Below are positions 5,064 through 27,567 of a DNA stretch of 35,869 nt, piece after piece. The notes beneath the pieces were generated by a model. That model worked only from the letters and a program-made list of their open reading frames with translations, made no database searches and was not told the DNA's origin. The stretch is taken from NCBI GenBank assembly GCA_031267295.1, contig JAIRZI010000045.1, positions 1 to 35,869 of the forward strand, in the 5' to 3' direction. Position 1 is the stretch's first letter; every line of letters begins with the position of its first letter. Source of the stretch: Propionibacteriaceae bacterium. Lineage in GTDB: Bacteria > Actinomycetota > Actinomycetes > Propionibacteriales > Propionibacteriaceae. The position numbers were made by a program, and so were the translations under genes.

Positions 5064-8000
5064 ATGTCTTTACGCGCGCCGACAGGTGGCGTGGCTGTGG
5101 ACTCCACAGTCACACGCCATCAGCATCCTACGCCGTCTTTGCCCGAACCGGGGCAGGTAGTTGAGGTACGCGGCTCGACATGGGCGGTCGCTGGAGTCAC
5201 AGCGCAGGGGTTGCCGGTGTCTCCGGCGGATGATTCGACGGTCGGTTTATCGCATGTGGTCGATCTGCAGTCGATGGACGAGGATCGTTTGGGTGAGATG
5301 CTGTCGGTGGTGTGGGAGTTGGAGGTTGGGAACTCGATTACTCCGGCACAGGGTCTGCCTGATCGAATCACCGACCAGGGGTTCGACGATCCGGTGACGT
5401 TGGCGGGGTTCATTGACGCGATGCGGTGGGGCGCGGTCACCTCGGCTGATCCGAACCGCTACCAGGCTCCATTCTGGTCAGGCGTGAATGTAAATGCGTA
5501 CCAATTGGAACCGCTGCACCGCGCATTGTCGTCACCTCGCGCGAATCTGCTGTTGGCTGATGACGTGGGTCTGGGGAAGACTATCGAGGCCGGGCTTGTT
5601 GTCCAGGAACTCTTACTGCGCCACCGGGCGCGGACGGTCGTGATTGTCTGTCCGCCGAGTTTGAGCATGAAGTGGGCCGACGAGATGCGGGACAAGTTTG
5701 GCTTGGGATTCGTTATCGTCAACTCCGAACTGATGTCGTCGATCCGCCGCAGCCACGGGTTGAATGCGAACCCGTTCACGTTGTTCCCGCGTGTGATCGT
5801 GTCAATGGCTTGGCTGCCTCAGAACCGCGCTCAACGCCTGCTGCGCCCGGTTTACGCTGAGGTCGACAATCCGAAATCGGGCCGCCGGTTCGCGTTTGAT
5901 ATCTTGATCGTTGATGAAGCCCACCATGTCGCACCATCATCCCCGTTGACCGTCGCACAGGGGCGGGGCTACGCCACAGACACGAACCGCACTGTCGAGG
6001 TGCGCCGTCTGGCCGAACGTTGCGAGCACCGCCTGTTCCTTTCGGCGACTCCGCACAACGGCCATCCAGAGTCGTTCATGGCACTGATGGAGATGATCGA
6101 TCCGCAGCGCTTCTCGCGCGGCGCATTGCTCGACAGTGTCGCGCTGAAGGATGTTATGGTGCGCAACCTCAAACGCGACTTGACCGATAAGGGGTTCAAA
6201 CGCCGCCAGGTCAAGTCGTTGGTGTTCACCCCGTCCGATCAAGAGCAAGTCATGTTCTCTGCCCTAGATGAAATCGTGCGCGCGTCGGCTAAACTGAACG
6301 ACGCTAAACCGGGTAGCGACATTGTGACGATGCTGTTGAAAAAGCGGTTTATGTCCAGCCCCTACGCCTTCGGCCAGACCTTGGCGCGCTACATGAACTC
6401 CCGCGACGGCTCCGGCCTGATCGATGACGATTACGACGACATTCTGGGCGAGGGCCAGTCCGACGAGGAAGAGGGCCTGTGGGAGCAGGATGAGTCGGAG
6501 TATCTGAAAATGTCGAAACGCTCCGGCTCCGACCCACTGCGATCCGCCACCCGCGAGCAGCTTGAACAGCTGCGAGATTGGGGATTGGGCTACGAGTCGA
6601 AAACTGATTCCCGAGCCGAGGCGCTGCTGGGCTTCCTTGACTCGGTGTGTCGCCCAGACGGCAAGATGTGGACGAATGAGCGGGTGGTCGTGTTCACCGA
6701 GTACGCCCACACCGTGGATTGGCTGGCGAGAATTCTGCGGCAACGCGACTACACGGACAGAATGGCTGTGATTCAGGGTTCGACACCGACGGGCAAGCAG
6801 CCCGGCGAGCGGGGGTATATTCGCGAGCAGTTCACCGAGAATCCGGTGGAGCAACCGGTCAGGGTATTGCTAGCGACTGACGCTGCCGGAGAGGGCATTG
6901 ACCTGCAAGACTACTGTCATCGGCTCGTCAACTTCGACATTCCGTTCAACCCATCCCGATTGGAGCAGCGCATCGGTCGAATCGACCGTTACGGCCAAAC
7001 TCAGGCTCCGCTAGTGTTTCACTTCCTGCCCGACCAAACGTCGTCAACCTATGCGGCGGACACGGCGTTCATGGGCGGTATCGCCCGGAAGATCGCCAAT
7101 GTCGAGCAAGACCTCGGCTCAACCAATGAGGTCATCGCCGACCAGATCCAGCGCCACTTCACCGGCGGCAAAGTCCCGACAAAACCAAAGGCTAGAGGCA
7201 ACAACTCTAACGATGTCATCAATCAGAACCTGGCGAGCGGCTTAGAGTTGAACGCCCGTTTGACTGAGTTGGAGCAGGGCTACGACGAGTCGCGTTCCCA
7301 GATTCACCTAGAGCCGGACAACCTTCGCCGTGTGGTCGACACCGCGTTGCGGATCAATAACCAGCTACCGCTGGTGCCCATCGCCGACCCATTCATCCCC
7401 TACGACCCTGACGGAGATGTGAAGCCCGCCGACACCCAGGTTTTCGAGGTGCCAAACCTGACCCTAGGTTGGCAGGTCGCACTGCGGGGTCTCGACATAG
7501 TTCTCAAACCAGGCGAGCGCCGACCTATTACATTCGATCCGGCAGCGATGGAGATCCGCGAACCCGACGGGGCGGGCGGAGTAACCGTCCGGCGGCGCAA
7601 CGATTTGGCCTACGTCCACCTTGGCCATCCGCTCGTCCAGAAAGCTCAACGTTTGCTGCGCCGCTCCTTGTGGAACGTTGGCTCGTCGCTGAACCGGGTG
7701 ACCGCAGTTGTCGTGGACGATTTGCCGGAGTCGTTCGTCGCCGCTGTCACGCGGATGGTGCTGGTCGGCAGGGGCGGTGTCCGGCTACATGAAGACGTGT
7801 TCCTTGCCGGAGTTCGTTTGCACGGCCGCCGAGTCATGGACGAAGACAAAGCCGAGGGTGCCCTCGATCAGGCTCTCGACACGGGCAACCTGGCTTTAGC
7901 CGACGAGCGCGTACGGCAGCAGATCGCCGCGATGTGGAACGCGCCGGATGCGCCGATCAAGGCTCGGCTCGAAAGCCGCATACAGACTCTCGCCGCACGC

Positions 8001-8345
8001 AAACACAAAGCGGTGCAGAGCCTGCTCGACAAGCGCCACGAGTCCGACGTGAAGCGCGCCCATGACATCTTCGCTGCGTTCCGCGAGAACCTGCGCCAGT
8101 CGCTGCGGCAACTCGAAGATGCACAAGCCGAGGAGGAAGCCCGGCTTTTCCTCGACCCAGACCAGCAGCGACAGCGACGGCGGGACATGGAGGCCATGAG
8201 TCGCCGCCTGGACGAGCTCGCCTCCGAGGAGGATCGAGAAATCACCGCGATCAACGAGCGCTACACCCAGCCTGAGCCGAACACCACAGCAGCGGCTTTG
8301 GTGTTTGCCCTGACCCGCGCCGACGCCGAAGGATGGATCGACTGA
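5064..8345 (+). CDS. drmD: DISARM DrmD, SNF2-family helicase
   Basis: 1093 aa; 'LLADDVGLGKTIEAGLVVQELL', 'LIVDEAHHVA', 'FLSATPHNG', 'LLATDAAGEGIDLQDYCHRLVNFDIPFNPSRLEQRIGRIDRYGQ'; first gene in class 1 DISARM order. Confidence 0.88.
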   Translation: MSLRAPTGGVAVDSTVTRHQHPTPSLPEPGQVVEVRGSTWAVAGVTAQGLPVSPADDSTVGLSHVVDLQSMDEDRLGEMLSVVWELEVGNSITPAQGLPDRITDQGFDDPVTLAGFIDAMRWGAVTSADPNRYQAPFWSGVNVNAYQLEPLHRALSSPRANLLLADDVGLGKTIEAGLVVQELLLRHRARTVVIVCPPSLSMKWADEMRDKFGLGFVIVNSELMSSIRRSHGLNANPFTLFPRVIVSMAWLPQNRAQRLLRPVYAEVDNPKSGRRFAFDILIVDEAHHVAPSSPLTVAQGRGYATDTNRTVEVRRLAERCEHRLFLSATPHNGHPESFMALMEMIDPQRFSRGALLDSVALKDVMVRNLKRDLTDKGFKRRQVKSLVFTPSDQEQVMFSALDEIVRASAKLNDAKPGSDIVTMLLKKRFMSSPYAFGQTLARYMNSRDGSGLIDDDYDDILGEGQSDEEEGLWEQDESEYLKMSKRSGSDPLRSATREQLEQLRDWGLGYESKTDSRAEALLGFLDSVCRPDGKMWTNERVVVFTEYAHTVDWLARILRQRDYTDRMAVIQGSTPTGKQPGERGYIREQFTENPVEQPVRVLLATDAAGEGIDLQDYCHRLVNFDIPFNPSRLEQRIGRIDRYGQTQAPLVFHFLPDQTSSTYAADTAFMGGIARKIANVEQDLGSTNEVIADQIQRHFTGGKVPTKPKARGNNSNDVINQNLASGLELNARLTELEQGYDESRSQIHLEPDNLRRVVDTALRINNQLPLVPIADPFIPYDPDGDVKPADTQVFEVPNLTLGWQVALRGLDIVLKPGERRPITFDPAAMEIREPDGAGGVTVRRRNDLAYVHLGHPLVQKAQRLLRRSLWNVGSSLNRVTAVVVDDLPESFVAAVTRMVLVGRGGVRLHEDVFLAGVRLHGRRVMDEDKAEGALDQALDTGNLALADERVRQQIAAMWNAPDAPIKARLESRIQTLAARKHKAVQSLLDKRHESDVKRAHDIFAAFRENLRQSLRQLEDAQAEEEARLFLDPDQQRQRRRDMEAMSRRLDELASEEDREITAINERYTQPEPNTTAAALVFALTRADAEGWID

Positions 8346-11300
8346 TGTTTCACCGCCCGCATCAACGCCGCGCCCTCAACGCCACCGAACAACACCGCGC
8401 TTGGCTCCAACTTGTCGACACCGATGGCCCGTTCCTCGCCGTGCCTGTCCTTAAACGGGTCTGGCCAGACGGCATACCCAATTTCGCCACCATCCATCCC
8501 GAGCGCTACGACCTGCTACATGACAAGTTCAAGACGTTCGGTGCGGCTTTCGATGCTGTCGATGCCGAACCCGAATCCGAAGAGCTTCAAGCCAGCTATC
8601 GACAGACCCGTGACCAGTGGGTCGAGACGGTGCTGCGGGCCGTGGTCGGTTGGGGCGATACGCTCGACTGGGGCGAAACGACGGGCATCCGGGCCACATC
8701 CCCGAACCGGGCTGTAACCATCCACTCCCAGGGCGTGCTGCGCGGCGCGGATGGTATCGGCGCGCTCGTCCATATCGTCGAACGCACCGTCAGCCTCCGC
8801 TCCACCCCCGCCGACCTATGGGCCACGACGCCCATCGACCGGATGGATGCCTTGCTGCGCGCCTCCGGCGTTCCCATCGGCATCGTTACCGACGGCCAAT
8901 GGTGGGGTCTAGTCTGCTCTCGCGAAAGCAGAATGACCGCATCCGGCATCGTCGACGCGCTGACCTGGATTTCCGAGCCGCGCACCCGTGATGCTTTCTT
9001 CACCTTGCTTGATCGGCAGTACATCATCGGAGGCGACCCTGACGAGCTTCTGCCGGAACTGTTCAAGGCATCTGAGACTGAGGCTGAGGAGACCACCGAA
9101 GCGCTGGGGGCGCAGGTTCGCAGCGCCGTTGAACTGCTCATCCAAGCGTTCGCCGAAGCCGCCGTCGAGGCCAAGCGTCGTGGCCAGGGCGACTCGCTGC
9201 CAGACGATCCGCACGCCACCTACGAGGCTGCGGTCACGGTGATGATGCGGGTCGTGTTCTTGCTGTTCGCGGAGGAGCGCGGTCTGCTGCCGTCCGGCGA
9301 CCTATTCGACCAGGGCTACGGCATCGCCCAAGAACTAGCCCGGCTCGAAACCCGCGAAGCCGCTGAGAGTGAGGAGATACTCGACTCCACCACCTTAACC
9401 TGGCACCGGTTGCTCGCCACCAGCCAAGCGCTCTACACCGGTGCGTCGTTCGAGAATCTGCGCATGCCCGCCTACGGTGGCTCCCTATTCGACCCGACCA
9501 GGTTCCCTTTCCTCAACGCCACCACCGAGCAAGGCAGCCTCGCCGTCGCCGTCTCTGACCGCGTCATGCTCCATGTCCTACGCTCTGTCCAGCTTGTCAA
9601 GGTCGGAGGCGAGTCCAGACACATCTCTTTTCGCGACATCGACGTGGAACAAATCGGCTACATCTACGAAGGTTTGCTTGGCTTCACTTGCCGCACCGTC
9701 GGTGAGGTTTACGTTGGCCTGCAAGGCACAGCAGGAGCTGAACCTGATATTCCGCTCGCCAGACTCGAAACACTGCGCGCCGAGAACCCAACCCCCGCCG
9801 CGTTCGCCGATGCCCTGCGCGCCTGGCTGGTCACCGACCAGCCATCAACCAAACCCAAGTCCGCGTCCGCCATTGCCCGCGCCTTGGACGCGCTGCCCGA
9901 CCCGATCATCGTCAGCGCCCTCACTCAGGCCGTCGGCGGCGACACCGACCTGCGCGCCCAGATTGAGCCATGGCTCGGGCTGATTCGCCCCGATTTGCGC
10001 AACCAACCCTTCATCGTCCTGCCTGGCGGGCTACTCGTCAAAGAAACCCCGTCGCGCAAGAACGCCGGAGCGCATTACACGCCCCGCTCTTTGGCCGAGG
10101 AAGTCGTCCTTCATGCGCTCCAGCCGCTTTGCTATTCGCCCGGCCCCTACCAAAGCGCTGACGAAAGCAGATGGGTGCTCAAGGGCTCCGTTGACATCCT
10201 GCGATTACGGATCGCCGACATCGCCTGCGGCTCCGGCGCATTCCTTGTCGCCGCCGCCCGCTACCTCGCCGACCGAATGGTCGAAGCCTGGACTATTGAA
10301 GACCCCTCGAATACCTACCACCGCGACCTCTACAGCCGAGCCATCCGCCAGGTCGTCGCCAAATGTCTCTACGGAGCCGACATCAATGGCATGGCCGTCG
10401 AGATGTGCAAACTATCGCTGTGGTTGGTTTCCCTCAACCCGAAATTGCCTTTCAGCTTCGTCGACGACAAAGTGTTGCACGGCAACTCCCTACTCGGCCT
10501 GACCGACCTTGACCAAATCCGCGAACTCCACATCTACCCGGCGGATGCCCGCAGCAACGGCGACCGGGATGCCCTGTTCTACACCAGCGCCGGGCGCATG
10601 ATGACCCAGCGGATCGACGTCAACGGTGTCATCTCCCGCGTCGCTGAACGTCGCCAACAACTCGCCAGCGAAGTCTCCGAAACCGACCCGGCGCGCACTG
10701 CGACCGCCAAGCGCCGCATCATGGCCGATAACGAACGCGACCTCGTCCAACTGACGACCCTCGCTGATGCCGTCGTGGCTGCCGGACTGCCCCTCGGCGC
10801 GCCCCGAGGCCGCGACAAGGAAACAACCCGCCCCGAGGTCGACCCAGACGGCAACGCCCGCTTCGTCGTCGAACACACCCCCGATGCGAAGCTCCAGACC
10901 AAATACAAGGCGTTGGCCGAGACCGCCAGCGTCGCCTTCCCCAAGAATGGCGACGGAGACCGTTCCGAAATTCTGCGCCTCATCGACACCGGCCTCACTC
11001 CCACCGTCGAAACGGACTATGACCACTGGCGATGCCTACATTGGGTTCTCGCAGTTCCCGACGTGATGGAACGTGGCGGCTTCAATGCCATCATCGGAAA
11101 CCCGCCGTTCTTGGGCGGACAGAAGCTGACCGGGGCTATGGGCACTGATGTGCGCGACTGGTTTGTCAACGTGCTGGCAGAGGGCCGCAGAGGAAGCGCC
11201 GACCTGGTGGCCTACTTCTTCTTGCGTGCCACCTCGCTCTTGCAAGCGAATGGGACTTTGGGGTTGATTGCCACGAATACTGTTGCGCAGGGCGATACTC

Positions 11301-12463
11301 GGGAAGTTGGTCTTGATGCGATGGTTGCGGAGGGGTTCACTATCACCCGCGCTATTCAGTCAAGGTCTTGGCCTGCTGCGAGTGCCAACCTTGAATATGC
11401 TGCCGTCTGGGGTACTCGCGCTGCTGTCGCCGACGCAGTGTCGAGAGTGGCCGACGACAGTCCGGTACGACGCATCAGCACCCTACTCGAACCAGCTGGA
11501 CGAGTCGAAGGTAATCCAGTCAGGTTGGCCGAGAACACAGGCATCGCCTTCCAAGGTTGCATCGTCCTTGGTATGGGATTCGTCATCGAGCCAGAGTTGG
11601 CACATGAGTGGATTGCCGCTGATGCACGCAACGCTGAGGTGTTGCTCCCCTACCTGAACGGTGAGGATTTGAACTCCCGCCCGGATGCCTCGGCATCCCG
11701 GTGGGTCATCGATTTCAACGACCGCAGCGAGGAGGAAGCTGCTAAGTACGAGTTGCCCTATGCGCGCACTTTGGAACTGGTCAAGCCAGAACGGCAACGG
11801 TTGAATGCGGAGGGGTCTTTCGTGCTGCGGAGACCACTACCGGAGCGCTGGTGGCAATACGGAGAGAAGAGACCGGCCATGCGGCAGGCTATCGCCGCTT
11901 TGTCGGAGGTGTTGGTCATCGCGCTTGTCAGCAAGACGGTCATGCCTGTTCGGGTTCCAACGGGACAGGTCTTCAGCCACGCCCTCGGGGTGTTCGCCTC
12001 GGATGACTACAGTGACCAGGCAGTCTTGTCATCAAGCCTGCATCAGGCTTGGGCAATCACTTACGGTTCGGGGATGCGCAACGACCCGCGTTACACGCCA
12101 TCAGATGTGTTCGAGACCTTCGCTCGCCCCGCCGCGACCGGGAGACTTGAGAGTGTCGGGCAGATTCTCGATAGCGAACGGCGGACAATCATGGTTCGCC
12201 GGAATCTGGGCTTGACCAGCCTCTACAACATGGTGAGTGATCCCGACATTACTTCAAGCGGCGACCATGACATCGCTCGACTGCGCGACATACACGTCGA
12301 ACTCGATGACGCAGTCTTGGATGCCTACGGTTGGTCAGACATTGACCTGCAGCGGGGTTTCCATGTCTTCAGACAGATGCGGCGATGGACTGTAAGCCCG
12401 GCCGCTCGAATCGAAATTCTGGGTCGTCTTTTGGAAGAGAACCACCACAGAGGTGATCGATGA
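8345..12463 (+). CDS. drmMI: DISARM DrmMI, N6-adenine DNA methyltransferase (current ON allele of an invertible gene)
   Basis: Motif I 'IADIACGSGAFLV', motif IV 'IIGNPPFLGG'; PglX-like C-terminus. The ORF track starts at 8333, but ATG 8345 overlaps the drmD stop (TGATG), implying translational coupling. Confidence 0.88.
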   Translation: MFHRPHQRRALNATEQHRAWLQLVDTDGPFLAVPVLKRVWPDGIPNFATIHPERYDLLHDKFKTFGAAFDAVDAEPESEELQASYRQTRDQWVETVLRAVVGWGDTLDWGETTGIRATSPNRAVTIHSQGVLRGADGIGALVHIVERTVSLRSTPADLWATTPIDRMDALLRASGVPIGIVTDGQWWGLVCSRESRMTASGIVDALTWISEPRTRDAFFTLLDRQYIIGGDPDELLPELFKASETEAEETTEALGAQVRSAVELLIQAFAEAAVEAKRRGQGDSLPDDPHATYEAAVTVMMRVVFLLFAEERGLLPSGDLFDQGYGIAQELARLETREAAESEEILDSTTLTWHRLLATSQALYTGASFENLRMPAYGGSLFDPTRFPFLNATTEQGSLAVAVSDRVMLHVLRSVQLVKVGGESRHISFRDIDVEQIGYIYEGLLGFTCRTVGEVYVGLQGTAGAEPDIPLARLETLRAENPTPAAFADALRAWLVTDQPSTKPKSASAIARALDALPDPIIVSALTQAVGGDTDLRAQIEPWLGLIRPDLRNQPFIVLPGGLLVKETPSRKNAGAHYTPRSLAEEVVLHALQPLCYSPGPYQSADESRWVLKGSVDILRLRIADIACGSGAFLVAAARYLADRMVEAWTIEDPSNTYHRDLYSRAIRQVVAKCLYGADINGMAVEMCKLSLWLVSLNPKLPFSFVDDKVLHGNSLLGLTDLDQIRELHIYPADARSNGDRDALFYTSAGRMMTQRIDVNGVISRVAERRQQLASEVSETDPARTATAKRRIMADNERDLVQLTTLADAVVAAGLPLGAPRGRDKETTRPEVDPDGNARFVVEHTPDAKLQTKYKALAETASVAFPKNGDGDRSEILRLIDTGLTPTVETDYDHWRCLHWVLAVPDVMERGGFNAIIGNPPFLGGQKLTGAMGTDVRDWFVNVLAEGRRGSADLVAYFFLRATSLLQANGTLGLIATNTVAQGDTREVGLDAMVAEGFTITRAIQSRSWPAASANLEYAAVWGTRAAVADAVSRVADDSPVRRISTLLEPAGRVEGNPVRLAENTGIAFQGCIVLGMGFVIEPELAHEWIAADARNAEVLLPYLNGEDLNSRPDASASRWVIDFNDRSEEEAAKYELPYARTLELVKPERQRLNAEGSFVLRRPLPERWWQYGEKRPAMRQAIAALSEVLVIALVSKTVMPVRVPTGQVFSHALGVFASDDYSDQAVLSSSLHQAWAITYGSGMRNDPRYTPSDVFETFARPAATGRLESVGQILDSERRTIMVRRNLGLTSLYNMVSDPDITSSGDHDIARLRDIHVELDDAVLDAYGWSDIDLQRGFHVFRQMRRWTVSPAARIEILGRLLEENHHRGDR
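11606..11716 (+). repeat. 111-bp perfect inverted repeat, proximal copy inside drmMI
   Basis: Reverse complement of 13220-13330 matches base for base by hand alignment. Encodes EWIAADARNAEVLLPYLNGEDLNSRPDASASRWVIDF. Confidence 0.97.
11675..11706 (+). promoter_or_regulatory. Candidate serine-recombinase crossover site, proximal
   Basis: TCCCGCCCGGATGCC-TC-GGCATCCCGGTGGGT: imperfect dyad (12 of 15 positions symmetric, inner 7 perfect) around non-palindromic dinucleotide TC at 11690-11691. Confidence 0.6.
11989..12070 (+). repeat. 82-bp perfect inverted repeat nested inside the invertible region, copy in drmMI
   Basis: Hand-aligned identical to the reverse complement of 12887-12968; encodes VFASDDYSDQAVLSSSLHQAWAITYGS. 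Confidence 0.95.
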
Positions 12464-12886
12464 GACACATCCCACGGCGGCCTACGAGTTTTGCTTTCCG
12501 TTAGCACGATGATGGTTCTCCTCAAGCAGACGGTCGAGTATCTCCAGCATGACTGCCTCGGAACAAGCCCAACGTCGCGCGCCTCGATATGAATAGAATC
12601 CGTAGTCAAGGCGGAGGTCGCCCCAACCATAGGAAGCGACGACAGCCTCGTCTAACTCTCTATGAATGGCACGAAGGTGCGCTACGTCTGCGTCGGCTGC
12701 GTCTAGCACATCCGGATCGTTGACCAAGTTGTAAAGCTTGGTGAGGCCGAGGGATCGCCGGAGCATGATCTCTTGCCTCGTACCGTCCAGGGTGGCTCCA
12801 ACAGTGCCCAAGCCGACCGTTGACCGTGGGCGAGGGAACGTCTCGAAGACATCGGATGGGGTGTAGCGCACCCTGGTCTCTAACGT

Positions 12887-12968
12887 CGAACCGTAAGTGA
12901 TTGCCCAAGCCTGATGCAGGCTTGATGACAAGACTGCCTGGTCACTGTAGTCATCCGAGGCGAACACC
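12887..12968 (-). repeat. 82-bp perfect inverted repeat, copy in silent cassette
   Basis: Reverse complement equals 11989-12070. Confidence 0.95.
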
Positions 12969-13219
12969 ACGCAGGCATCGCTGAGTACTTGCCCAGTGGG
13001 TACCCGCAGAGGCATGACAGTCTTGCTGACACGCGCGATGACCAACACCTCCGACAAGTCTGCAATCGCTCTGCGCATCGCTGGAGCCCACGCCGCAAAG
13101 AGCCACCAGTTTTCGCGGCGATAGTCGATAGAGACTTTGTCCCGCTGCGGCTTGACATAGTGCAATACTCGGTGGAACGGGAGTAGATACTTAGCCGCTT
13201 CCTCTCGACTCTTCGTGCC

Positions 13220-13330
13220 GAAATCGATGACCCACCGGGATGCCGAGGCATCCGGGCGGGAGTTCAAATCCTCACCGTTCAGGTAGGGGAGCAACACCTC
13301 AGCGTTGCGTGCATCAGCGGCAATCCACTC
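13220..13330 (-). repeat. 111-bp perfect inverted repeat, distal copy
   Basis: Reverse complement equals 11606-11716; carries the same dyad with central GA (top strand) at 13245-13246. Confidence 0.97.
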
Positions 13331-13372
13331 CTGCGCCGGCAAATGGCAGTTGTAGGGTCAGCATTGTTAAGC

Positions 13373-14695
13373 ATGAACCTAATGAAACAAGTCTGTCGGT
13401 GTGTCCTGTACGCTCGGCTCAGTGTCACCAAAGAAGAATCCGTCTCCATTGCCCGGCAGCTTCAATCCTGTCGCAGCTACGCTCAGGCGCGCGGCTGGGA
13501 AGTCGTTGGTGAGTTTGTTGACGACGGCGTGTCCGCGACAGCGAATCGTCCCGAGGAACGCAAGGGTTGGGCGGCGCTCTTGGCCACAGGCGGCTTTGAT
13601 GCCGTCGTGATTTGGAAAGTGGATCGACTCGCCCGGCGTGTTCTCGACTTCCTGCACGCCGACGAAGCCCTCCAGAGGCGCGGCGCTGGCCTAGTCGCAG
13701 TGGAAGACCCTATTGATATGACCAGCCCCCAGGGTCGGGCTTTCGCCGTCATGCTGGCCGTGTTTGGCGAGATGGAGGCCGAGGCGATGCGGGCGCGAGT
13801 GCGCGCAGCTCGTTCGGCGTTGCTCAAGGTTGGGCGCTGGCCGGGCGGTGGCATCCCGTTCGGTTATCTGTCGGTAGCGAACCCCGATGGGCCGGGACGG
13901 GTGCTCGCGAAGGATGCCGAGCGTATCCACTGGCTGGCTGAGGTGGCGGCGATGGCCTTGTGCGGCGAGGCTGTCAATGCCATCGCCCGATGGCTGACAA
14001 CCGAGGGCGCACCAGTCCCAGGAGAACGCAAAGTGAGTCAGAGCGATCCCATCTGGAACCGGCAGACAGTCTATGGTCTGTTGCGCAACCCCATCCTGGC
14101 TGGGATGCGACCCCACAATCCCGGTCGAGGCAGGCAGGGCGCACGAGTCGACCCGTTCTCTGTCGTCCGTGACGATGTTGGCGTGCCTGTCATCGATGAA
14201 TCGCTAGCAGTTATCACTTTAGATGAATTCACCCAGCTTCAGCAGCTGCTCGATTCCCGTGACCTGCCGCAGGCTCGGAAGCATGGCGAACGGGTGACGA
14301 CCAGTCCGTTCCTCTCCTGTGTGGCTCGCTGCGATGATTGTGACGTGTTTTTGTGCCGGGGTACTAATCAGGGTAGGCCTGTTTTGTCGTGTCCGCAGTG
14401 CCGTCAGACTATAGGTCGTACTGCTCTCGATCCGTACCTTGCTGAACGTCTACTTACCGAACGTGGTGGTGAGCCGCTTGGCGATTCTACTGTCCGAGAT
14501 TGCTGGAATGTTGTCAAGTACAACGAGTCCGCCAAGCGTGACATTCTTCTGACTCAGCTTGATTTCCTGTATATCCGCCGAGGTGTGGTGGGTCGCTACT
14601 TCGATGAGGAGCGCATCATCCTGGCTTGGCGCAGATCTGCCGATCCTGCGCATTCTGGCATCGGCGACGGAAACTGTCATACCTGGCTGGAATAA
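13373..14695 (+). CDS. Large serine recombinase, putative DrmMI invertase
   Basis: 'CVLYARLSVTKEESVSIARQLQSCRSYAQARGWEVVGEFVDDGVSAT...GFDAVVIWKVDRLARRVLDFLHADEALQRRGAGLVAVEDPIDMTSPQGRAFAVMLAVFGEMEAEAMRARV' is the serine resolvase catalytic domain; followed by a recombinase domain ('GRWPGGGIPFGY...') and zinc-ribbon-like cysteines ('CVARCDDCDVFLCRG...LSCPQC'). The ORF track starts at 13343. Confidence 0.88.
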   Translation: MNLMKQVCRCVLYARLSVTKEESVSIARQLQSCRSYAQARGWEVVGEFVDDGVSATANRPEERKGWAALLATGGFDAVVIWKVDRLARRVLDFLHADEALQRRGAGLVAVEDPIDMTSPQGRAFAVMLAVFGEMEAEAMRARVRAARSALLKVGRWPGGGIPFGYLSVANPDGPGRVLAKDAERIHWLAEVAAMALCGEAVNAIARWLTTEGAPVPGERKVSQSDPIWNRQTVYGLLRNPILAGMRPHNPGRGRQGARVDPFSVVRDDVGVPVIDESLAVITLDEFTQLQQLLDSRDLPQARKHGERVTTSPFLSCVARCDDCDVFLCRGTNQGRPVLSCPQCRQTIGRTALDPYLAERLLTERGGEPLGDSTVRDCWNVVKYNESAKRDILLTQLDFLYIRRGVVGRYFDEERIILAWRRSADPAHSGIGDGNCHTWLE

Positions 14696-14721: not shown

Positions 14722-15045
14722 GTGAACTTGCCAGACAGAGTCAGCGCCGAGGCGGGCGAGCGGGGTGCGGGTGTGTCTTCTGGGTCTGGAGGTGAAGCGG
14801 TGAGAAAGCGCGAGTACTACGAGTTGGAAGCGGCGCGGAACGGGTGGACGGGTCGGGAGTTGGAGCGGCAGGTCGACTCGATGTTGTTTGAGCGGGTGTT
14901 ATTGTCGCAGGACAGGAAATCGGTTATGGAGATGGCTCGGCGGGAGCGTCTACCTGAACGTCCAGCCGAGTTGAAGCGCGAGATCAAGGCGGTCGAAGAG
15001 CAACAGGCCGATGCCGAACAGGAAAGCGAGAGTGAAAATGACTGA
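14722..15045 (+). CDS. Small ORF resembling the N-terminal part of DUF1016 (YhcG-like), possible remnant
   Basis: 'YYELEAARNGWTGRELERQVDSMLFERVLLSQDRKSVMEMARR' resembles the DUF1016 N-terminal pattern (FY...A..NGWS.RELERQI.S.LYER..LS.DK); no PD-(D/E)XK domain follows. Overlaps the drmA start. Confidence 0.5.
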   Translation: MNLPDRVSAEAGERGAGVSSGSGGEAVRKREYYELEAARNGWTGRELERQVDSMLFERVLLSQDRKSVMEMARRERLPERPAELKREIKAVEEQQADAEQESESEND

Positions 15046-18000
15046 AACCGTAACACCACCAACCGCACCCGGCTATCAACTCGGCTATCCGTTGGATGGT
15101 ACCTCGTATGCGGTGCGGGAAAATTTCGTCGACATTCTCGGCAGGGAGCTTGTCGGGCCGATGAACGGTTCTGAGGAGGTCGTGCTACTGAGCCCGCGCC
15201 AGCTCTATTTAGCGGGATATCTGGCTCCGGTGAAGGTGGTAGAGACATCCGCCGAAACCGAAACCGAAACCGGACGAGATGATGACGGCAATCTGGTCGA
15301 GATGCTAGCCGATCCGGGAGCGCGGGCTGCGGGTCGTGGCGTACCGGTCGCCATAGTCGATTCCTCAGACGCTGATGATGAAGACGATGATGCCGAAGAT
15401 CGCGCACCAAAGTCTGGGTTGATGGCGGCATCGTCGATGGGGTTGCGGTTCCAAATTGGTATGGACGTGGAGTCTTTTCAGGTGACGGCATCATGGGGGT
15501 TGTACGAATCGGTGGCGACGGACAAGATATCGAAGTCGGGCCATCCGATTCGTCATTACAAGCGCACACCCATTGAAGAGCCACGCACCATCAAAGTTGC
15601 CGACTTACAGCTGGGTGTGACAAAGACGGTGCCGTTGCGTGATGCGGCGGTGTTGCGCATTGACCGGTACGACGACGCGGAACACGGTCGGCGGCTGATC
15701 GAAATCGCTTTGTGTAACGACCGGGAGACGCCGTTGCCAATCCCGTTGGGAATGTGGATGTGGCAAACGGGTATGCGGGTAGACGCTTGGGGCGCTGAGG
15801 TGTTCCTGCCGGTGCGCGACATGCTGGAGCAAGACTGGCAGGAACACGACGAAGAGGTCAGGCGACTGAATCTTCAGTACCGCGACAGGCTGGAGTTCGC
15901 GGTCGGACGGACGTGTTCGGTGGACTGGGTAGTCAAGGCTGGTTCGCGGCGAGCAACAGAGGTGTCTACGACGTGGGTGCCGACGGCGGAGACGCCGCAG
16001 ACTTTGGCCGGGTCGGTTGAGGGAGCACTGCTGAGCATGGATGCTTTGTCGGCAGCGGATGCGCAGGCTGTCAAGGCTGGATTAGCCCCATTGGTGGACG
16101 GCTACGGAGCGTGGCTTGATGTTCAGGAGTCCGCCGCAAAGAACCTGCCGCCATGGCTGGCCGAGACCGCCGATCTGGCGTTGTGGGAGGCGCGGCGCGC
16201 ACACCAGCGACTGGTGGACGGTTTGGAGTTCTTGGGGTCAGATGTGGAGGCGCTGCGGTGTTTCCAGTTTATGAACCGGGTCATGCGCGACCAGCGGGTC
16301 GCGTCGCAGGTAGCTGGGGAACGGGCGGGCAACCCGTCGGTATCGATCCAGCAGGCTCGTGACCAGGTGCTAACCGACAGTTCTGGGAATCAGGTGGCAG
16401 CTTGGCGTCCATTCCAGTTAGCGTTCATCCTGATGCAGCTTCGGGCGTTGACCGACCCGGCGGCGACTTTACGGAGCGCCGAGCACCAGGCGCAGGTCGA
16501 GTTGCTGTTCTTCCCGACCGGTGGCGGTAAGACCGAGGCGTATCTGGGGTTGGCTGCGTACACGTTCGCCATCCGCCGTCGCCAGGGCGTGATCAAGTTG
16601 GCAGACGATTCATTGGATGGGTTGGATGGCGTGTCGGTGTTGATGCGGTACACGTTGCGGTTGTTGACGGCGCAGCAGTTCCAGCGGGCGACGGCGTTGG
16701 TGTGCGCGGCAGAGTTGGCTCGCCGGGAGGATGAAGCGATGTGGGGTTCGACGCCGTTCCGAATCGGCTTATGGGTGGGCACAGATGTGTCCCCGAAGCA
16801 GTTCGAGGAGGCGAAGGAACAGCTCGATCGGGTCAATGACCATGGCGGCTATCGGCTACCGGTGTTACAGATCAAGCGCTGCCCGTGGTGTGGCACGCCG
16901 ATCACTCCGGCGCAAGTGAAGACCGACAAAACCATGCGGCGGGTCTATGTGTATTGCGGCGACGATCTGGCACGCTGCCCGTTCTCCAAAGGCGGCGGCA
17001 TCGTGGAAGGTCTGCCGGTGTTGACGGTGGACGAGGAGATATACCGACTGACCCCAGTGTTCGTGATTGCTACGGTCGATAAGTTCGCCCGACTGGCTCG
17101 GGAGGGTCATGCGGCATCGTTGTTCGGCTACGTGTCGAAGAAGTGTGGCAGACACGGCTACGTCCACCCGGACTACTTGGGTTGCACCATCACCACCCAG
17201 CACCAAGCCGAGGATGGCCATCCGAAGGCAACCATTACCCCAGTGAAGCGTCTGCGTCCGCCTGATTTGATTATCCAGGACGAGTTGCACCTGATCACGG
17301 GGGCTTTGGGCACATCGGTTGGTTTGTTCGAGGTCGCAGTCGAGACATTGTGTTCTTGGGAGGCTTCGGATGGCCAGCCGGTCAGGCCGCTGATCGTGGC
17401 ATCAACGGCGACAGTACGAAACGCCCGTGAACAGGTGCGCGGCTTGTATGGCCGGGCGGTGTCGATCTTCCCGCCACAGGTGTTGGACGTGGCCGACACG
17501 TATTTCTCCCGCGAGATGCCGGTAAACCGAGATCATCCGGGTCGCCGCTATGTCGGCATATCGGCTTATGGGGTGCGGCTGACGGCGGCTGAAATCCGGG
17601 TCGCCGAGACTCTGTTGGAGAGCGGGCAGTTGTTGTTCGACCAGGTGGGAGCGGTTGCGGATCCGTACATGACGTTGGTGGGCTATTTCAACGCAACCCG
17701 CGAGTTGGCCGGTATGCGTCGGTTCATTGACGACGACGTGTCCAGCCGAGTGAAACGTCCACGGCTTGGCTCTGGCTTCTCGCCCAGGCGAGGCGCATTC
17801 CCGAACGGCATTCTAGGAGTCGAGGAGTTGACCAGTCGGAATGACTCAGACCGGATCGCAAACGTGTTGAACCTGCTCGGCTTGGCGTTTGACCCGGACT
17901 ACGACACGACTACCGCCTATCAAGATCGGATGGCTCGCATTAAAGCTAAAGAGAAGGTGCCGCAGCGCAAAGAGAAAGACTCTCCGTTCGATGTGGTGCT

Positions 18001-18778
18001 GGCCACGTCGATGCTGCAAGTCGGTGTGGATGTGCCCCGGCTCGGCTTGATGCTGGTGGTTGGCCAGCCGAAGAACACCGCCGAGTACATCCAGGCATCC
18101 TCCCGCGTGGGCCGCGACACCGGCAGGGGTGTCGAGCGTGATAAGCCCGGCCTAGTGGTTACGCTAGCCAACTGGGCCAGACCGCGCGACCTGGTGCATT
18201 TTGAGCAGTTCCGCCACTACCACGACACGTTCTACGCCCAAGTTGAAGCGTTATCGGTCACACCGTACTCACCGACGTCGCTGGAACGCGGCATTGACGG
18301 GCTACTAGTATCGACCGTCAGGGTGCTGCAGGCTCCGCTTGACTACGGCCTATCACCGGAACGCAACGCCGGGCGGATTGCCGCGCAGCATGACGTGATC
18401 GCCAAGGCTGTGGAGCGGTTGAAGGCTCGAATCGCCACCGCAGCGCTAGACGACAAGGCCACCAGGCAGGCGTCCGACGCGCTGGCCAACCGACTCGACC
18501 GGTGGGCCGAGCGCGCCAGACACGCCGCCGCGATGAGCCAAGCGCTGGTGTATGAGCGGGTCGGCGGCACGGGGCAATTCCTGTCATTGATTGTATCGCC
18601 GGAGAATTTGCGGGCAGCCAGCGGGATGGGAGACCGAGCTCCGTTCGTCGTCGCCAACTCGATGCGCGAGGTGCAGCCTGAGATCAACGTACTCGTCTCA
18701 CCGCTACCCGACCGCATGTTCACCAGCACCCCCGGCGGCGTCGCCGGATGGACGTTGCCCGCCGAAGGAGATGACTGA
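15038..18778 (+). CDS. drmA: DISARM DrmA, large helicase
   Basis: 'LLFFPTGGGKTEAYLGLAAY', 'PPDLIIQDELHLITGALGT', 'IVASTATVRNA', 'ATSMLQVGVDVPRLGLMLVVGQPKNTAEYIQASSRVGRD'. The ORF track starts at 15011; ATG 15038 is likelier. Confidence 0.88.
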   Translation: MTETVTPPTAPGYQLGYPLDGTSYAVRENFVDILGRELVGPMNGSEEVVLLSPRQLYLAGYLAPVKVVETSAETETETGRDDDGNLVEMLADPGARAAGRGVPVAIVDSSDADDEDDDAEDRAPKSGLMAASSMGLRFQIGMDVESFQVTASWGLYESVATDKISKSGHPIRHYKRTPIEEPRTIKVADLQLGVTKTVPLRDAAVLRIDRYDDAEHGRRLIEIALCNDRETPLPIPLGMWMWQTGMRVDAWGAEVFLPVRDMLEQDWQEHDEEVRRLNLQYRDRLEFAVGRTCSVDWVVKAGSRRATEVSTTWVPTAETPQTLAGSVEGALLSMDALSAADAQAVKAGLAPLVDGYGAWLDVQESAAKNLPPWLAETADLALWEARRAHQRLVDGLEFLGSDVEALRCFQFMNRVMRDQRVASQVAGERAGNPSVSIQQARDQVLTDSSGNQVAAWRPFQLAFILMQLRALTDPAATLRSAEHQAQVELLFFPTGGGKTEAYLGLAAYTFAIRRRQGVIKLADDSLDGLDGVSVLMRYTLRLLTAQQFQRATALVCAAELARREDEAMWGSTPFRIGLWVGTDVSPKQFEEAKEQLDRVNDHGGYRLPVLQIKRCPWCGTPITPAQVKTDKTMRRVYVYCGDDLARCPFSKGGGIVEGLPVLTVDEEIYRLTPVFVIATVDKFARLAREGHAASLFGYVSKKCGRHGYVHPDYLGCTITTQHQAEDGHPKATITPVKRLRPPDLIIQDELHLITGALGTSVGLFEVAVETLCSWEASDGQPVRPLIVASTATVRNAREQVRGLYGRAVSIFPPQVLDVADTYFSREMPVNRDHPGRRYVGISAYGVRLTAAEIRVAETLLESGQLLFDQVGAVADPYMTLVGYFNATRELAGMRRFIDDDVSSRVKRPRLGSGFSPRRGAFPNGILGVEELTSRNDSDRIANVLNLLGLAFDPDYDTTTAYQDRMARIKAKEKVPQRKEKDSPFDVVLATSMLQVGVDVPRLGLMLVVGQPKNTAEYIQASSRVGRDTGRGVERDKPGLVVTLANWARPRDLVHFEQFRHYHDTFYAQVEALSVTPYSPTSLERGIDGLLVSTVRVLQAPLDYGLSPERNAGRIAAQHDVIAKAVERLKARIATAALDDKATRQASDALANRLDRWAERARHAAAMSQALVYERVGGTGQFLSLIVSPENLRAASGMGDRAPFVVANSMREVQPEINVLVSPLPDRMFTSTPGGVAGWTLPAEGDD

Positions 18779-18780
18779 CC

Positions 18781-20853
18781 ATGACTATGACCGAGACCAT
18801 GACCGAGACCATCGCTGCTTTCGAAGCGCCCGTCATGTTGGAAGATACCCAAACCCTCGACCCGCTGGCCGATGCCGAAGAAGCCAACGCCAAGAACCGT
18901 GCTAAGGTCGGCACCGCCCGTCCCTCGTCGCTGCTCTACACGTACGGGCCAGGGTCGATTATGGATTTGCCGAACTTCTCAGTCATGCCCGCCGGATTGG
19001 ACGACTGGGAGCCGATCTGGAGATGTCGCTCCCAGATTCCAGTCATCGCTGAACCGCGCCTGCTGGACGTGGTGCGCCTCCACCTAGGGCCGCAGGTGGA
19101 CTCACTGCGCCCCTATCCGTGGCAACCATCCCGTGGGTTCGGCACCCAGGAAGGCTCCGACCTGGGCATCCCAGCCAGAGTGTTCCCGCAATGGCTGCGC
19201 TGCACCGGCTGCGACTACCTCGGCCCGCTTCCCCGGTTCACATATGAGAACACCCACCCGTTCCGGCCTGACCGAGCTGAGTTCACTCACACCGGCTGCC
19301 CTGGTCGTAGCGGGCAAAGCTTCGGAAAGCGCAAAAGTTCCGCCGTCCCGACTCCGCATCTACTGACCTGCACCAACGGGCATCTGGACGAGTTTCCCTA
19401 CGCGCTGTGGGTTCACAACGGCCTGCCGTGCCCGAACACCGATCCGGGCGTGATCCCTGACTTGAAGATGCGCGACGCGAATCTGGGAAAGTCTGTCGGC
19501 TCCACTATTAGCTGCGGAGCCTGCGGCGCGAAGCGCGGCATGGCCGAAGCCCAAGGTGAGGTTGGCAAGCAGAAACTTCCCCAAACCTGCCGTGGGCGAC
19601 ATCCGCACTTGGGCGCGTTCGATCCAAGCTGCGACGCCAAGCCGACGCTGATCATGATGGGCGCGTCCAACCTGTGGTTTCCGTCCACCCAGTCGGTTAT
19701 CGTCATGCCGCGCACAGATGCGAACAAGACCGAAGCCATCGCTGACCATCTGCGAGCCGAACTGGGTCTGGACTCGCTCCGGCAGTTCGGCGACCAAATT
19801 GCCGTCATTCGTGCGCTCGCGGCTGCCCGAAGCATCGACCTGATCGGCGTGACCGATGCGGATATCCATGCGATTGTCGCTGATGCGCTCAAACCGGCAG
19901 ATTCCGTTGAGGAACGGATGGAGAAGCTCGCCCGCTGGGATCCGGTAGAACTTCTCGTCTCCGAATGGGACTACCTGCAACGCCCAACCCTGTTCGCTCA
20001 GCAGGAGAACTCGTCTGGGCTGATGGTCACCGAGATGCCGCTCGGCGACAGCTTGCGTCCCGGAATCACACGGGTTGTCGCGGTGAACAAGATGAAGAAG
20101 ATCAACGCCGTTCTCGGCTTCACCCGCCTTGACGAAATGGATCGGGCGGGCGACCTCGCTTCCCGGCTGGTCAAGCTCACCAGGGATCGCAAGCCCCGCT
20201 GGGTGCCCGCCACCGAGGACCGGGGCGAAGGCATCTTCCTGCAACTCGACCTCAACGCTGTGGAGGCTTGGGAGCGGCAGGTGCTCGGCTCAGCCTTATG
20301 GGAAGCCCACCGGGCGGCGCACTACCGCAACTTCAAGAACCGCTACTCTGAGACCGCCCAGTGGGTCAATCCCGACACCCGGCTGCCAAAGCCGCGCTAC
20401 TGGCTGCTCCACACTCTCGCGCACATCCTCATCCGCGAGATGGCGATGTTGTGTGGCTATGGGGCAGCGTCTTTGAGCGAGCGTATCTACGGCTGGAGCC
20501 AGTCTGCCAACCGTGCCGCCGCTGCCGGGCTACTGATCTGCACCACTGCGTCCGACTCAGAAGGGACTCTCGGCGGACTGGTCGCTCTGTCCGACCCGGT
20601 GCGGCTGCAAGGGATTGTTGAATCGGCGTTGCGCCGAGCCTGCCGCTGCTCATCTGACCCACTGTGCGCGACCCGAACCCCAGGTTCCAGCGAGGATTTC
20701 CTACACGGCGCGGCCTGCCATTGCTGCGCATTCGCGTCGGAGACCAGTTGCGAGCGCTCCAACCGGTTCCTTGATCGCCGCTTCCTGCTCGACCTGCCTC
20801 AACCAGTCGGCGAGCCAACCGTGCCCGGCTTCTTCGGGAGAATTTATGCCTGA
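18781..20853 (+). CDS. drmB: DISARM DrmB, DUF1998 protein
   Basis: 'RPSSLLYTYGPGSIMDLPNFSVMPAGLDDW' N-terminus; C-terminal DUF1998-like region with 'HTLAHILIREMAMLCGYGAASLSERIYG' and a cysteine cluster 'CRCSSDPLCATRTPGSSEDFLHGAACHCCAFASETSC'. Confidence 0.88.
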   Translation: MTMTETMTETIAAFEAPVMLEDTQTLDPLADAEEANAKNRAKVGTARPSSLLYTYGPGSIMDLPNFSVMPAGLDDWEPIWRCRSQIPVIAEPRLLDVVRLHLGPQVDSLRPYPWQPSRGFGTQEGSDLGIPARVFPQWLRCTGCDYLGPLPRFTYENTHPFRPDRAEFTHTGCPGRSGQSFGKRKSSAVPTPHLLTCTNGHLDEFPYALWVHNGLPCPNTDPGVIPDLKMRDANLGKSVGSTISCGACGAKRGMAEAQGEVGKQKLPQTCRGRHPHLGAFDPSCDAKPTLIMMGASNLWFPSTQSVIVMPRTDANKTEAIADHLRAELGLDSLRQFGDQIAVIRALAAARSIDLIGVTDADIHAIVADALKPADSVEERMEKLARWDPVELLVSEWDYLQRPTLFAQQENSSGLMVTEMPLGDSLRPGITRVVAVNKMKKINAVLGFTRLDEMDRAGDLASRLVKLTRDRKPRWVPATEDRGEGIFLQLDLNAVEAWERQVLGSALWEAHRAAHYRNFKNRYSETAQWVNPDTRLPKPRYWLLHTLAHILIREMAMLCGYGAASLSERIYGWSQSANRAAAAGLLICTTASDSEGTLGGLVALSDPVRLQGIVESALRRACRCSSDPLCATRTPGSSEDFLHGAACHCCAFASETSCERSNRFLDRRFLLDLPQPVGEPTVPGFFGRIYA

Positions 20854-21547
20854 CAATCCGTTCACCGCGCTCGGCGCGTACCTCACTTCGACCGAAGCCG
20901 AGGCTCTCGCCGTGCTCCTTGAGAACGGGCAGCACATCTCTCTTGCCGTCAACAGCGTCAACCAATCCCGGCGCGAGAAAGCCAAGAAGTTGCTGGCCGA
21001 CGCGGGTATCAGCCATACCGAACCCAGGTTTGCCGGGGCGGTATTACGCTCTGTCGTCGGAGCCAAGTCCGTTCTCCATGACCTAGTCCCAGTGTGGACG
21101 ATGCCCGGTAACGAGGCCGACACTGGACACTTGACCGGCGAGTTCTCCCGGCTCGTCCACAACGCTAGAATCTCAATCACCTGCGCCACCTACAACTTCG
21201 AGACCACCTCCCAGATGTGGGATGCCCTCAAACAAGCCGCCGAGCGGCTCGACATAGCCGTGACTGTCTATCTTGATGCCTCCGCCTCCGCTTCTGCCGC
21301 TGTCAAGACCCGGTTGGCTAAAGCGACGGTGTACCGGTCGTCCAACATCGCCGGGAAACTAATCCGTAGTCACGCCAAGTTCGTTATCATCGACCACACC
21401 CTCGTCCTACTCACCAGCGCCAACTTCTCCTGGTCGGCCGAGAACCGCAACATCGAGTTTGGTCTACTTGTCCATGATGCCACGCTCGCCACCAGTGTCG
21501 AATCCACGATGGTTTCCAAGCACGGCACCTTGTACGAAATTGTGTAG
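20846..21547 (+). CDS. drmC: DISARM DrmC, phospholipase D-like protein
   Basis: ATG 20846 overlaps the drmB stop; single HKD motif 'SHAKFVIIDHTLVLLTSANFSWSAENRNIEFG'. The ORF track 5' extension (20615) lies within drmB. Confidence 0.85.
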   Translation: MPDNPFTALGAYLTSTEAEALAVLLENGQHISLAVNSVNQSRREKAKKLLADAGISHTEPRFAGAVLRSVVGAKSVLHDLVPVWTMPGNEADTGHLTGEFSRLVHNARISITCATYNFETTSQMWDALKQAAERLDIAVTVYLDASASASAAVKTRLAKATVYRSSNIAGKLIRSHAKFVIIDHTLVLLTSANFSWSAENRNIEFGLLVHDATLATSVESTMVSKHGTLYEIV

Positions 21548-21750: not shown

Positions 21751-22017
21751 TTAGTGCGGAATGGTTTGTAGTTGGTTGAGGATGGTTGTGGTGGTTTGGG
21801 GTATTGCTGGTGGGATGGTGGTTTGTTGTCCGTTGATGTTGATGGTGGCGGAGCGTAGTGGTTGTAGTAGGTTTCTGAAGCGTTTCAGGGTGAGGCCGGT
21901 GCGGGTTTTGATGGTTCTGGTGATGGCGAGTGCGGCGAATACGGTGGTTAGATGGGTGTCTATTGAGTCTCGTTGCCGGTGGAAGATTGGTTGGGCTTTC
22001 AAGTCGTGTTTACTCAT
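21751..22017 (-). pseudogene. IS1634-like transposase C-terminal part in a shifted frame
   Basis: 'MSKHDLKAQPIFHRQRDSIDTHLTTVFAALAITRTIKTRTGLTLKRF' is the expected continuation after '...FEVETSFR', displaced by one base (AGAAATGAGTAAA). Confidence 0.7.
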
Positions 22018-27252: not shown

Positions 27253-27567
27253 GTAAATCTACCGTCTTTTTTAGAGGCTTCGGGTAAGCGACTCCGTACT
27301 TAACAGTGAGTTTCTCCCGCAACGTACCGCGAATATGCTTCTCACAAGCAATAAATAAACTTCAATAATACAAAGTTTAATAAATAAAATAAATGCGATA
27401 TAGCCGGGTTTTGTGCCGGAAAATGGGGATAATTGGAGTATGAAATAATCGCTAATAGTTGTATTATTAGTTCCTGCGTTCAATTATTTGCGCTTAGAAT
27501 TAAAGTTCCTGGGCGAAAGCGGCATAAGACCCTTCCTTCCTCCCCGGAGCGGATTTTGGAGGGATTT

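What the first reader, a model, noticed from the sequence alone, without database searches (positions are those of the whole stretch)
13343..14695. Large serine recombinase built into the DISARM operon between drmMI and drmA
The gene sits codirectionally in the operon, ~40 bp from the distal repeat, leaving all five drm genes intact. This argues for a dedicated specificity switch rather than random insertion. Most known DNA invertases are small serine (Hin-like) or tyrosine enzymes; a ~440-aa large serine recombinase acting on identical inverted sites would be mechanistically unusual, since these enzymes typically use non-identical attB/attP sites with directional control.
Basis: partly seen in the sequence, partly recalled or inferred. 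Interest (0 to 1): 0.7.

Follow-up and report, generated by a model that had tools for sequence, protein, structure and literature searches.

The report
Recombinase-driven specificity switch inside DISARM
A bacterial anti-phage system carries a spare copy of the part of its DNA-marking enzyme that chooses which sequence to mark, plus a dedicated DNA-cutting enzyme that appears to flip the spare copy in and out, so a population could keep changing the marks that phages have to match.

Summary
Confirmed, and stronger than proposed. The gene is a large serine recombinase (LSR; probable start 13373) between drmMI and drmA of an intact class 1 DISARM operon. It sits next to an inverted, silent copy of the DrmMI target-recognition/C-terminal region. 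The two copies share a 111-bp exact inverted repeat.

Twenty-nine related loci were found across Actinomycetota. Wherever the upstream sequence is assembled and undisturbed (26 of 29), the recombinase follows this cassette. Fourteen DISARM loci without the recombinase have no cassette.

Recombinase-bearing drmMI genes show DNA-level codon conservation at four short sites; genes without it do not. Four hybrid junctions break at the same aligned dinucleotide of three of these sites, as a serine recombinase with a 2-bp overlap would produce. C-terminal alleles have swapped between active and silent positions during evolution, including between the window and its nearest relatives.

The DISARM recombinases all lack the coiled coil present in their nearest LSR relatives. 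Published work shows that a coiled-coil-deleted LSR recombines identical sites, but only within one molecule.

Not shown: inversion in living cells, or altered methylation. I found no earlier report of an invertible DISARM or an LSR invertase in the library searched.

The parts
13373..14695 (+). large serine recombinase (catalytic domain, recombinase domain, zinc ribbon, no coiled coil); the ORF opens at 13343 but homologues start at the ATG at 13373
   Evidence: Pfam PF00239 and PF07508; alignment of 24 sequences; AlphaFold2 model and Foldseek to Bxb1/phiC31 integrases
8333..12463 (+). drmMI, active copy of the class 1 DISARM adenine methyltransferase; residues after ~1092 are exchangeable
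   Evidence: PADLOC DrmMI E=0; MmeI_TRD 1083-1267
12482..13342 (-). silent alternative DrmMI C-terminus (MmeI-type TRD plus C-terminal region, 286 codons), inverted and without its own 5' part
   Evidence: PADLOC DrmMI 4.6e-119; Pfam MmeI_TRD 6.7e-9
11599..11716 (+). left arm of main inverted repeat, holding site A (35-bp core 11606-11640; predicted crossover dinucleotide TT at 11613-11614)
   Evidence: 118 nt, 98%, 111 bp exact; site A defined; core unique
13220..13337 (-). right arm of main inverted repeat, holding site A (core 13296-13330; dinucleotide at 13322-13323)
11900..11951 (+). site C in the active copy (predicted dinucleotide TC at 11916-11917); silent counterpart about 13006-13057
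   Evidence: exact 25-bp block and near-identical flank; codon conservation; three hybrid loci use C-right with 0-left and one with A-left
11989..12070 (+). site B block in the active copy (conserved codons 1230-1233 at 12020-12031); silent counterpart 12887-12968
   Evidence: 82 bp exact between the copies; codon conservation; no hybrid junction seen, so less certain
5064..8345 (+). drmD
   Evidence: PADLOC DrmD E=0
15011..18778 (+). drmA
   Evidence: PADLOC DrmA 4.7e-296
18781..20853 (+). drmB
   Evidence: PADLOC DrmB 9.2e-64; Pfam MZB
20615..21547 (+). drmC (PLD nuclease)
   Evidence: PADLOC DrmC 1.9e-91; Pfam PLDc_2

Best explanation
The gene encodes a dedicated DNA invertase of DISARM, made from a large serine recombinase that has lost its coiled coil. 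It binds matching inverted sites in the active drmMI gene and in the silent cassette, 1.7 kb apart, makes double-strand breaks with a 2-bp overlap (TT at site A), and rejoins the ends so that the intervening DNA is inverted. This swaps the target-recognition and C-terminal part of DrmMI (about 285 of 1,376 residues) without touching the rest of the operon. It should therefore change the sequence that DISARM methylates to mark self. Further sites (0, C, B) allow exchange of smaller segments, so two cassettes could yield more than two enzymes. Losing the coiled coil would let the enzyme act on identical sites, in both directions, but only within one DNA molecule. Shown by sequence: anatomy, association, DNA constraint, in-register hybrid junctions, evolutionary swapping, absence of the coiled coil. 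Inferred: that this recombinase does the inverting, that it is reversible in living cells, and that methylation specificity changes.
For: (1) Association: 29 distinct loci with recombinases >=64% identical. In 26 the cassette or its arm lies immediately or shortly upstream; the other 3 have a contig end or altered upstream sequence. In an unbiased class sample, 4 of 4 recombinase-bearing DISARM loci have the cassette or its arm against 0 of 14 without. (2) DNA constraint: of 925 drmMI codon columns, 18 show same-codon use beyond each gene's own codon usage at p<1e-4. Thirteen of these lie at sites 0, A, C and B and one more at 1215; for example ATT at I1094 in 15/17, p=2e-12. Recombinase-free genes show none at these sites. 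(3) Hybrid junctions in L040, L043, L047 and L057 join the left half of one site to the right half of another, all at the same aligned dinucleotide with at most 1 bp of shared sequence. Sites A and C, and 0 and C, are alike in that register (17/36; 2 of 61 shifts as good). (4) C-terminal tree: 16 of 18 loci carry exactly one X-type allele, active in 8 and silent in 8. Window-active groups with the silent copies of L049 and L054 (100/99) and window-silent with their active copies (100/99). (5) All 22 DISARM recombinases in the alignment lack the ~65-residue coiled coil found in all 7 nearest non-DISARM LSRs examined. (6) A coiled-coil-deleted Listeria integrase recombines all four site pairs tested, identical ones included, within a molecule but not between molecules (PMC3783163).
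Against: No pair of strains or reads showing both orientations in one population was available. No biochemical evidence. Dyad symmetry around the predicted dinucleotides is weak. Site B fits the common register poorly and has no hybrid junction. Unlinked histories of segments S1 and S3 across all cassettes (Mantel r=0.00 against 0.36 within S3) are less clear when only active copies are compared (r=0.24). Several loci have a broken recombinase (L048, L054, G038), so the switch is not always kept. In phiC31 integrase, deleting the coiled coil abolished activity (PMC10754689), so its loss alone does not guarantee function.
Confidence: 0.86

Rival explanations
1. The cassette inverts by ordinary RecA-dependent homologous recombination between the long arms; the recombinase is incidental.
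For: Arms are long enough (111 bp exact here, up to 467 bp exact in L033). In several loci the recombinase is broken although the cassette remains.
Against: Near-perfect presence/absence match between recombinase and cassette. Short codon-conserved sites only in recombinase carriers. Hybrid junctions at one dinucleotide with 0-1 bp of homology. Some loci keep exact matches of only 41-46 bp over site A (L038, L044).
Confidence: 0.06
2. The recombinase is the integrase of a mobile element that landed in DISARM; the duplicated C-terminus is by-product cargo and no longer moves.
For: The nearest non-DISARM relatives (46-53%) are coiled-coil LSRs; the neighbourhood of one (L053) carries further recombinase genes and an AAA gene. 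LSRs are mostly integrases.
Against: Same site and same orientation in 29 loci across many families, mostly with no other cargo. The silent cassette is homologous to the local drmMI. Alleles have swapped position since divergence. Lack of the coiled coil is unlike an integrase, which needs it to join separate molecules.
Confidence: 0.05
3. The inversion is an on/off switch rather than a specificity switch: one of the two C-termini gives an inactive DrmMI.
For: The silent allele's function is untested. In L040 the active gene carries a frameshifting 0/C deletion, an off state.
Against: In the window both alleles are in frame and carry TRD homology, and in most loci both copies align over the full C-terminal segment. 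Members of both allele groups are found in the active position in different loci, so both are retained.
Confidence: 0.08

Closest known systems
Invertible type I restriction specificity genes (hsdS shuffling, e.g. pneumococcal SpnIII / PsrA; PMC4948785, PMC7096588)
   Same: A silent partial specificity gene in inverted orientation next to the active one, exchanged through inverted repeats to alter DNA-methylation specificity.
   Different: Here the target is a single-chain DISARM methyltransferase, the enzyme is an LSR rather than a tyrosine recombinase, and the sites are short DNA-constrained motifs inside conserved coding segments.
Phase-variable BREX pglX cassettes (recalled from memory, e.g. 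lactobacilli; not tested here)
   Same: Anti-phage methyltransferase with an inverted partial copy and a recombinase nearby.
   Different: Different defence system and, from memory, a tyrosine-type recombinase.
Large serine recombinases / serine integrases (Bxb1, phiC31, LI, A118)
   Same: Catalytic domain, recombinase domain, zinc ribbon, 2-bp overlap; best structural matches 9iu2 (Bxb1) and phiC31 entries.
   Different: No coiled coil; apparently acts on matching inverted sites within a gene instead of joining attP and attB.
Hin/Gin-type small serine DNA invertases
   Same: Inversion between inverted sites with a 2-bp overlap (from memory).
   Different: About 190 aa with a small DNA-binding domain (from memory) and a Fis-bound enhancer (abstract of PMC3798978); this enzyme is 440 aa with LSR DNA-binding domains, and no enhancer was looked for.
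Class 1 DISARM
   Same: drmD-drmMI-drmA-drmB-drmC, all intact.
   Different: The passages on DISARM gene content that I read (PMC9142583) do not mention a recombinase or an invertible drmMI.

Membership tests
Large serine recombinase | N-terminal resolvase domain with nucleophilic serine (YARLS) and conserved arginines | tested here: met
   PF00239 1.7e-31; serine (S17 from M at 13373) and the DRLAR motif invariant in the alignment
Large serine recombinase | Recombinase domain and zinc ribbon C-terminal to the catalytic domain | tested here: met
   PF07508 1.7e-10; two CxxC pairs C320/C323 and C340/C343 invariant or nearly so; Foldseek to Bxb1, phiC31 and LI integrases
Large serine recombinase | Coiled coil inserted in the zinc-ribbon domain (in characterised serine integrases) | tested here: not met
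   About 65-residue gap in all 22 DISARM members against 7 relatives with it; the model has only a 9-residue loop
Serine integrase (directional, attP x attB) | Two different attachment sites, irreversible without a directionality factor | tested here: not met
   The two sites are identical over at least 35 bp; reversibility inferred from evolutionary swapping, not from biochemistry
DNA-inversion switch of methyltransferase specificity | Active and silent alternative recognition cassettes in inverted orientation with shared sites | tested here: met
DNA-inversion switch of methyltransferase specificity | Both orientations observed | tested here: inconclusive
   Seen between related species; not testable within one population here
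DNA-inversion switch of methyltransferase specificity | Different methylation motif in each orientation | not testable with these tools
   Needs methylome data
Class 1 DISARM | drmD, drmMI, drmA, drmB, drmC in one operon | tested here: met
Hin-type small serine invertase | About 190 aa with a short C-terminal HTH and a Fis enhancer | tested here: not met
   440 aa with LSR domains; enhancer not searched

The most novel reading that the evidence does not exclude
A natural class of coiled-coil-less large serine recombinases that work as reversible, intramolecular invertases on several short sites embedded in one gene. Same-type sites would recombine efficiently and mismatched central dinucleotides (AC, TT, TC) would limit cross-recombination, giving a combinatorial shuffler of DISARM methylation specificity.
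Probability: 0.5. Interest if true: 0.88.

Novelty: new variant of a known kind. Interest (0 to 1): 0.8.

Why it matters
It would be the first DISARM found to change its self-mark by programmed inversion, and the first LSR found to serve as an invertase (as far as the library searched shows). It would also suggest that evolution removed the coiled coil that gives integrases their directionality, a natural test of the published model of directionality. For biotechnology, a compact bidirectional LSR with short sites and no partner protein could be a resettable DNA switch. For phage biology it predicts that phage modified by one DISARM state lose protection when the cassette flips.

Tried and rejected
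A palindrome in the arm (CCGGATGCC TC GGCATCCCGG, 11681-11701) looked like a crossover site; it lies outside the codon-conserved stretches found later and no hybrid junction falls there, so it was dropped in favour of site A. Sliding-window codon-identity excess was too noisy and was replaced by a per-column test against each gene's own codon usage. Dyad symmetry of the sites: weak, not used. Recent horizontal exchange of cassettes between loci: no near-identical cassettes. Plasmid-borne homologues: none at E<=1e-30. Same-genus relatives with a close homologue: none. A family survey (245 genomes) gave no new DISARM locus beyond two known ones. Literature searches for invertible DISARM or LSR invertases found none.

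Full report
What is there. The window is contig C36 of a 1.69-Mb genome, 95.65% complete. A genome of the same family in the search, G038, has contigs that match Propioniciclava flava, so the window's organism is probably a member of Propionibacteriaceae. It carries class 1 DISARM: drmD, drmMI, drmA, drmB and drmC, all open. Between drmMI and drmA lie two extra items. On the minus strand at 12482-13342 is a 286-codon copy of the DrmMI C-terminus with an MmeI-type target-recognition domain. On the plus strand is the recombinase (Pfam PF00239 and PF07508). The ORF opens at 13343, but homologues begin at the equivalent of the ATG at 13373. The drmMI 3' part and the silent copy face each other and share a 118-bp arm (98%, 111 bp exact) and an inner 198-bp arm (86%, with 82 bp exact).

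It recurs. Three genomes among 96 relatives carry recombinases about 67-72% identical, all next to drmA and to drmMI cassettes or arms; in one of them (G038) the gene is split across contigs and interrupted by what looks like an IS3-type element. A scan of one genome per species found 30 loci. Counting each genome once and adding those, there are 29 DISARM loci, from Propionibacteriaceae, Microbacteriaceae, Nocardioidaceae, Micromonosporaceae, Pseudonocardiaceae, Promicromonosporaceae and others. In 26 the silent cassette, or the repeat arm at a contig end, lies upstream of the recombinase. In the remaining three the contig begins there (L042) or the upstream sequence is changed (L046, L056). 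A class-wide sample of drmMI genes gives the control: all four recombinase-bearing loci have the cassette or its arm, and none of 14 recombinase-free loci does; in several of the latter drmMI runs straight into drmA.

The sites. Exact matches between active and silent copies cluster at a few positions of drmMI. I tested codon use column by column against each gene's own codon usage. In 17 recombinase-bearing genes, 18 of 925 columns reach p<1e-4. Thirteen fall in four short stretches: residues 965-970 (site 0), 1090-1101 (A), 1190-1200 (C) and 1230-1233 (B), with one more at 1215. The 14 recombinase-free genes show none there. Site A reads GCGCAAGAGTGGATTGCCGCNGATNCNCGCAACGC. Its 35-bp core occurs exactly twice, inverted, in the window's genome, and in the 394-genome class sample only in one other carrier. 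In the window the cores are 11606-11640 (+) and 13296-13330 (-).

The crossover point. Four loci carry hybrids of two different sites: L040 in its active gene (0-left with C-right, a frameshifting deletion of about residues 973-1193), L043 and L057 at the silent edge (0-left with C-right), and L047 at the silent edge (A-left with C-right). When sites 0, A and C are aligned (A with C and 0 with C each match at 17 of 36 positions; only 2 of 61 shifts are as good), all four junctions fall at the same two positions, with at most 1 bp of shared sequence. That is what a 2-bp overlap leaves, and not what homologous recombination leaves. It predicts TT at 11613-11614 and 13322-13323 for site A. Site B has no hybrid and fits the register poorly, so its role is less certain.

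It has moved. In a tree of the segment after site B (18 loci, both copies), clade X (96/84) holds exactly one copy from each of 16 loci, active in eight and silent in eight; most of the partner copies fall in clade Y (99/93) or beside it. The active/silent label needs 15 changes against a shuffled mean of 13.9, so it is not clustered. The window and its nearest relatives L049 and L054 are swapped, with support 100/99 on both sides. The segment between A and C has different closest relatives from the segment after B, as expected if inner sites are also used. The Mantel comparison supports this across all cassettes but weakly among active copies, so I treat shuffling at the inner sites as likely rather than shown.

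How an integrase-type enzyme can do this. Serine integrases normally join attP to attB and will not recombine other pairs (PMC3783163). All 22 DISARM enzymes in the alignment have a gap of about 65 residues exactly where their seven closest non-DISARM relatives have the coiled coil. The model shows a 9-residue loop there (mean pLDDT 80, domain arrangement uncertain with pTM 0.47). In the Listeria LI integrase, deleting the coiled coil gave an enzyme that recombined all four site pairs tested, attB x attB and attP x attP among them, within a molecule, but none between molecules (PMC3783163). That is the behaviour an inversion switch over 1.7 kb needs. Caution: the same deletion abolished phiC31 integrase activity (PMC10754689).

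What it would do. DISARM's core is thought to be restrained by methylation of self DNA (PMC9142583). Exchanging the DrmMI recognition region would change that mark, so phage modified by cells in one state would meet a different system in the other. This step is inferred.

Novelty. Inversion of restriction-specificity genes is a known kind (hsdS, PMC4948785 and PMC7096588). The library searched held no report of an invertible DISARM or of an LSR as an invertase; it lacks most subscription papers. I therefore file this as a new variant of a known kind.

Noticed in passing
window 14722-15045: Small ORF (107 aa) between the recombinase and drmA with a weak match to the DUF1016 N-terminal domain (1e-5, below the Pfam cut-off); possibly a remnant.
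   Followed up: no
window 1977-4805: SF1 helicase with AAA_11/AAA_12 and a C-terminal DUF2726, similar to MkoA/MkoC models, directly upstream of drmD; it was not found in the related DISARM loci at the same place, only a weak match in L036.
   Followed up: partly
L040:8020-8140: The active drmMI of a Pseudoclavibacter MAG carries a 0/C site deletion that shifts the frame, while its silent copy is intact: possibly a naturally off state.
   Followed up: partly
L048, L054, L024/L057, L037, L046: Recombinase broken, deleted, or separated from the cassette by inserted DNA (an IS3-like element in Propioniciclava flava), so the switch seems to be lost repeatedly.
   Followed up: partly
L051:3877-4758: Truncated copy of a DISARM-type recombinase (73% identical) with no drm genes within the fetched stretch.
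   Followed up: no
window 27433-30996: Large beta-helix repeat protein with 87-bp DNA repeats and SLH domains, unrelated to DISARM; two adjacent repeats share an identical 45-bp stretch.
   Followed up: no
window 22010-23236: DDE transposase (PF01609) just beyond drmC, marking the edge of the defence region before ribosomal L25, peptidyl-tRNA hydrolase and enolase genes.
   Followed up: no
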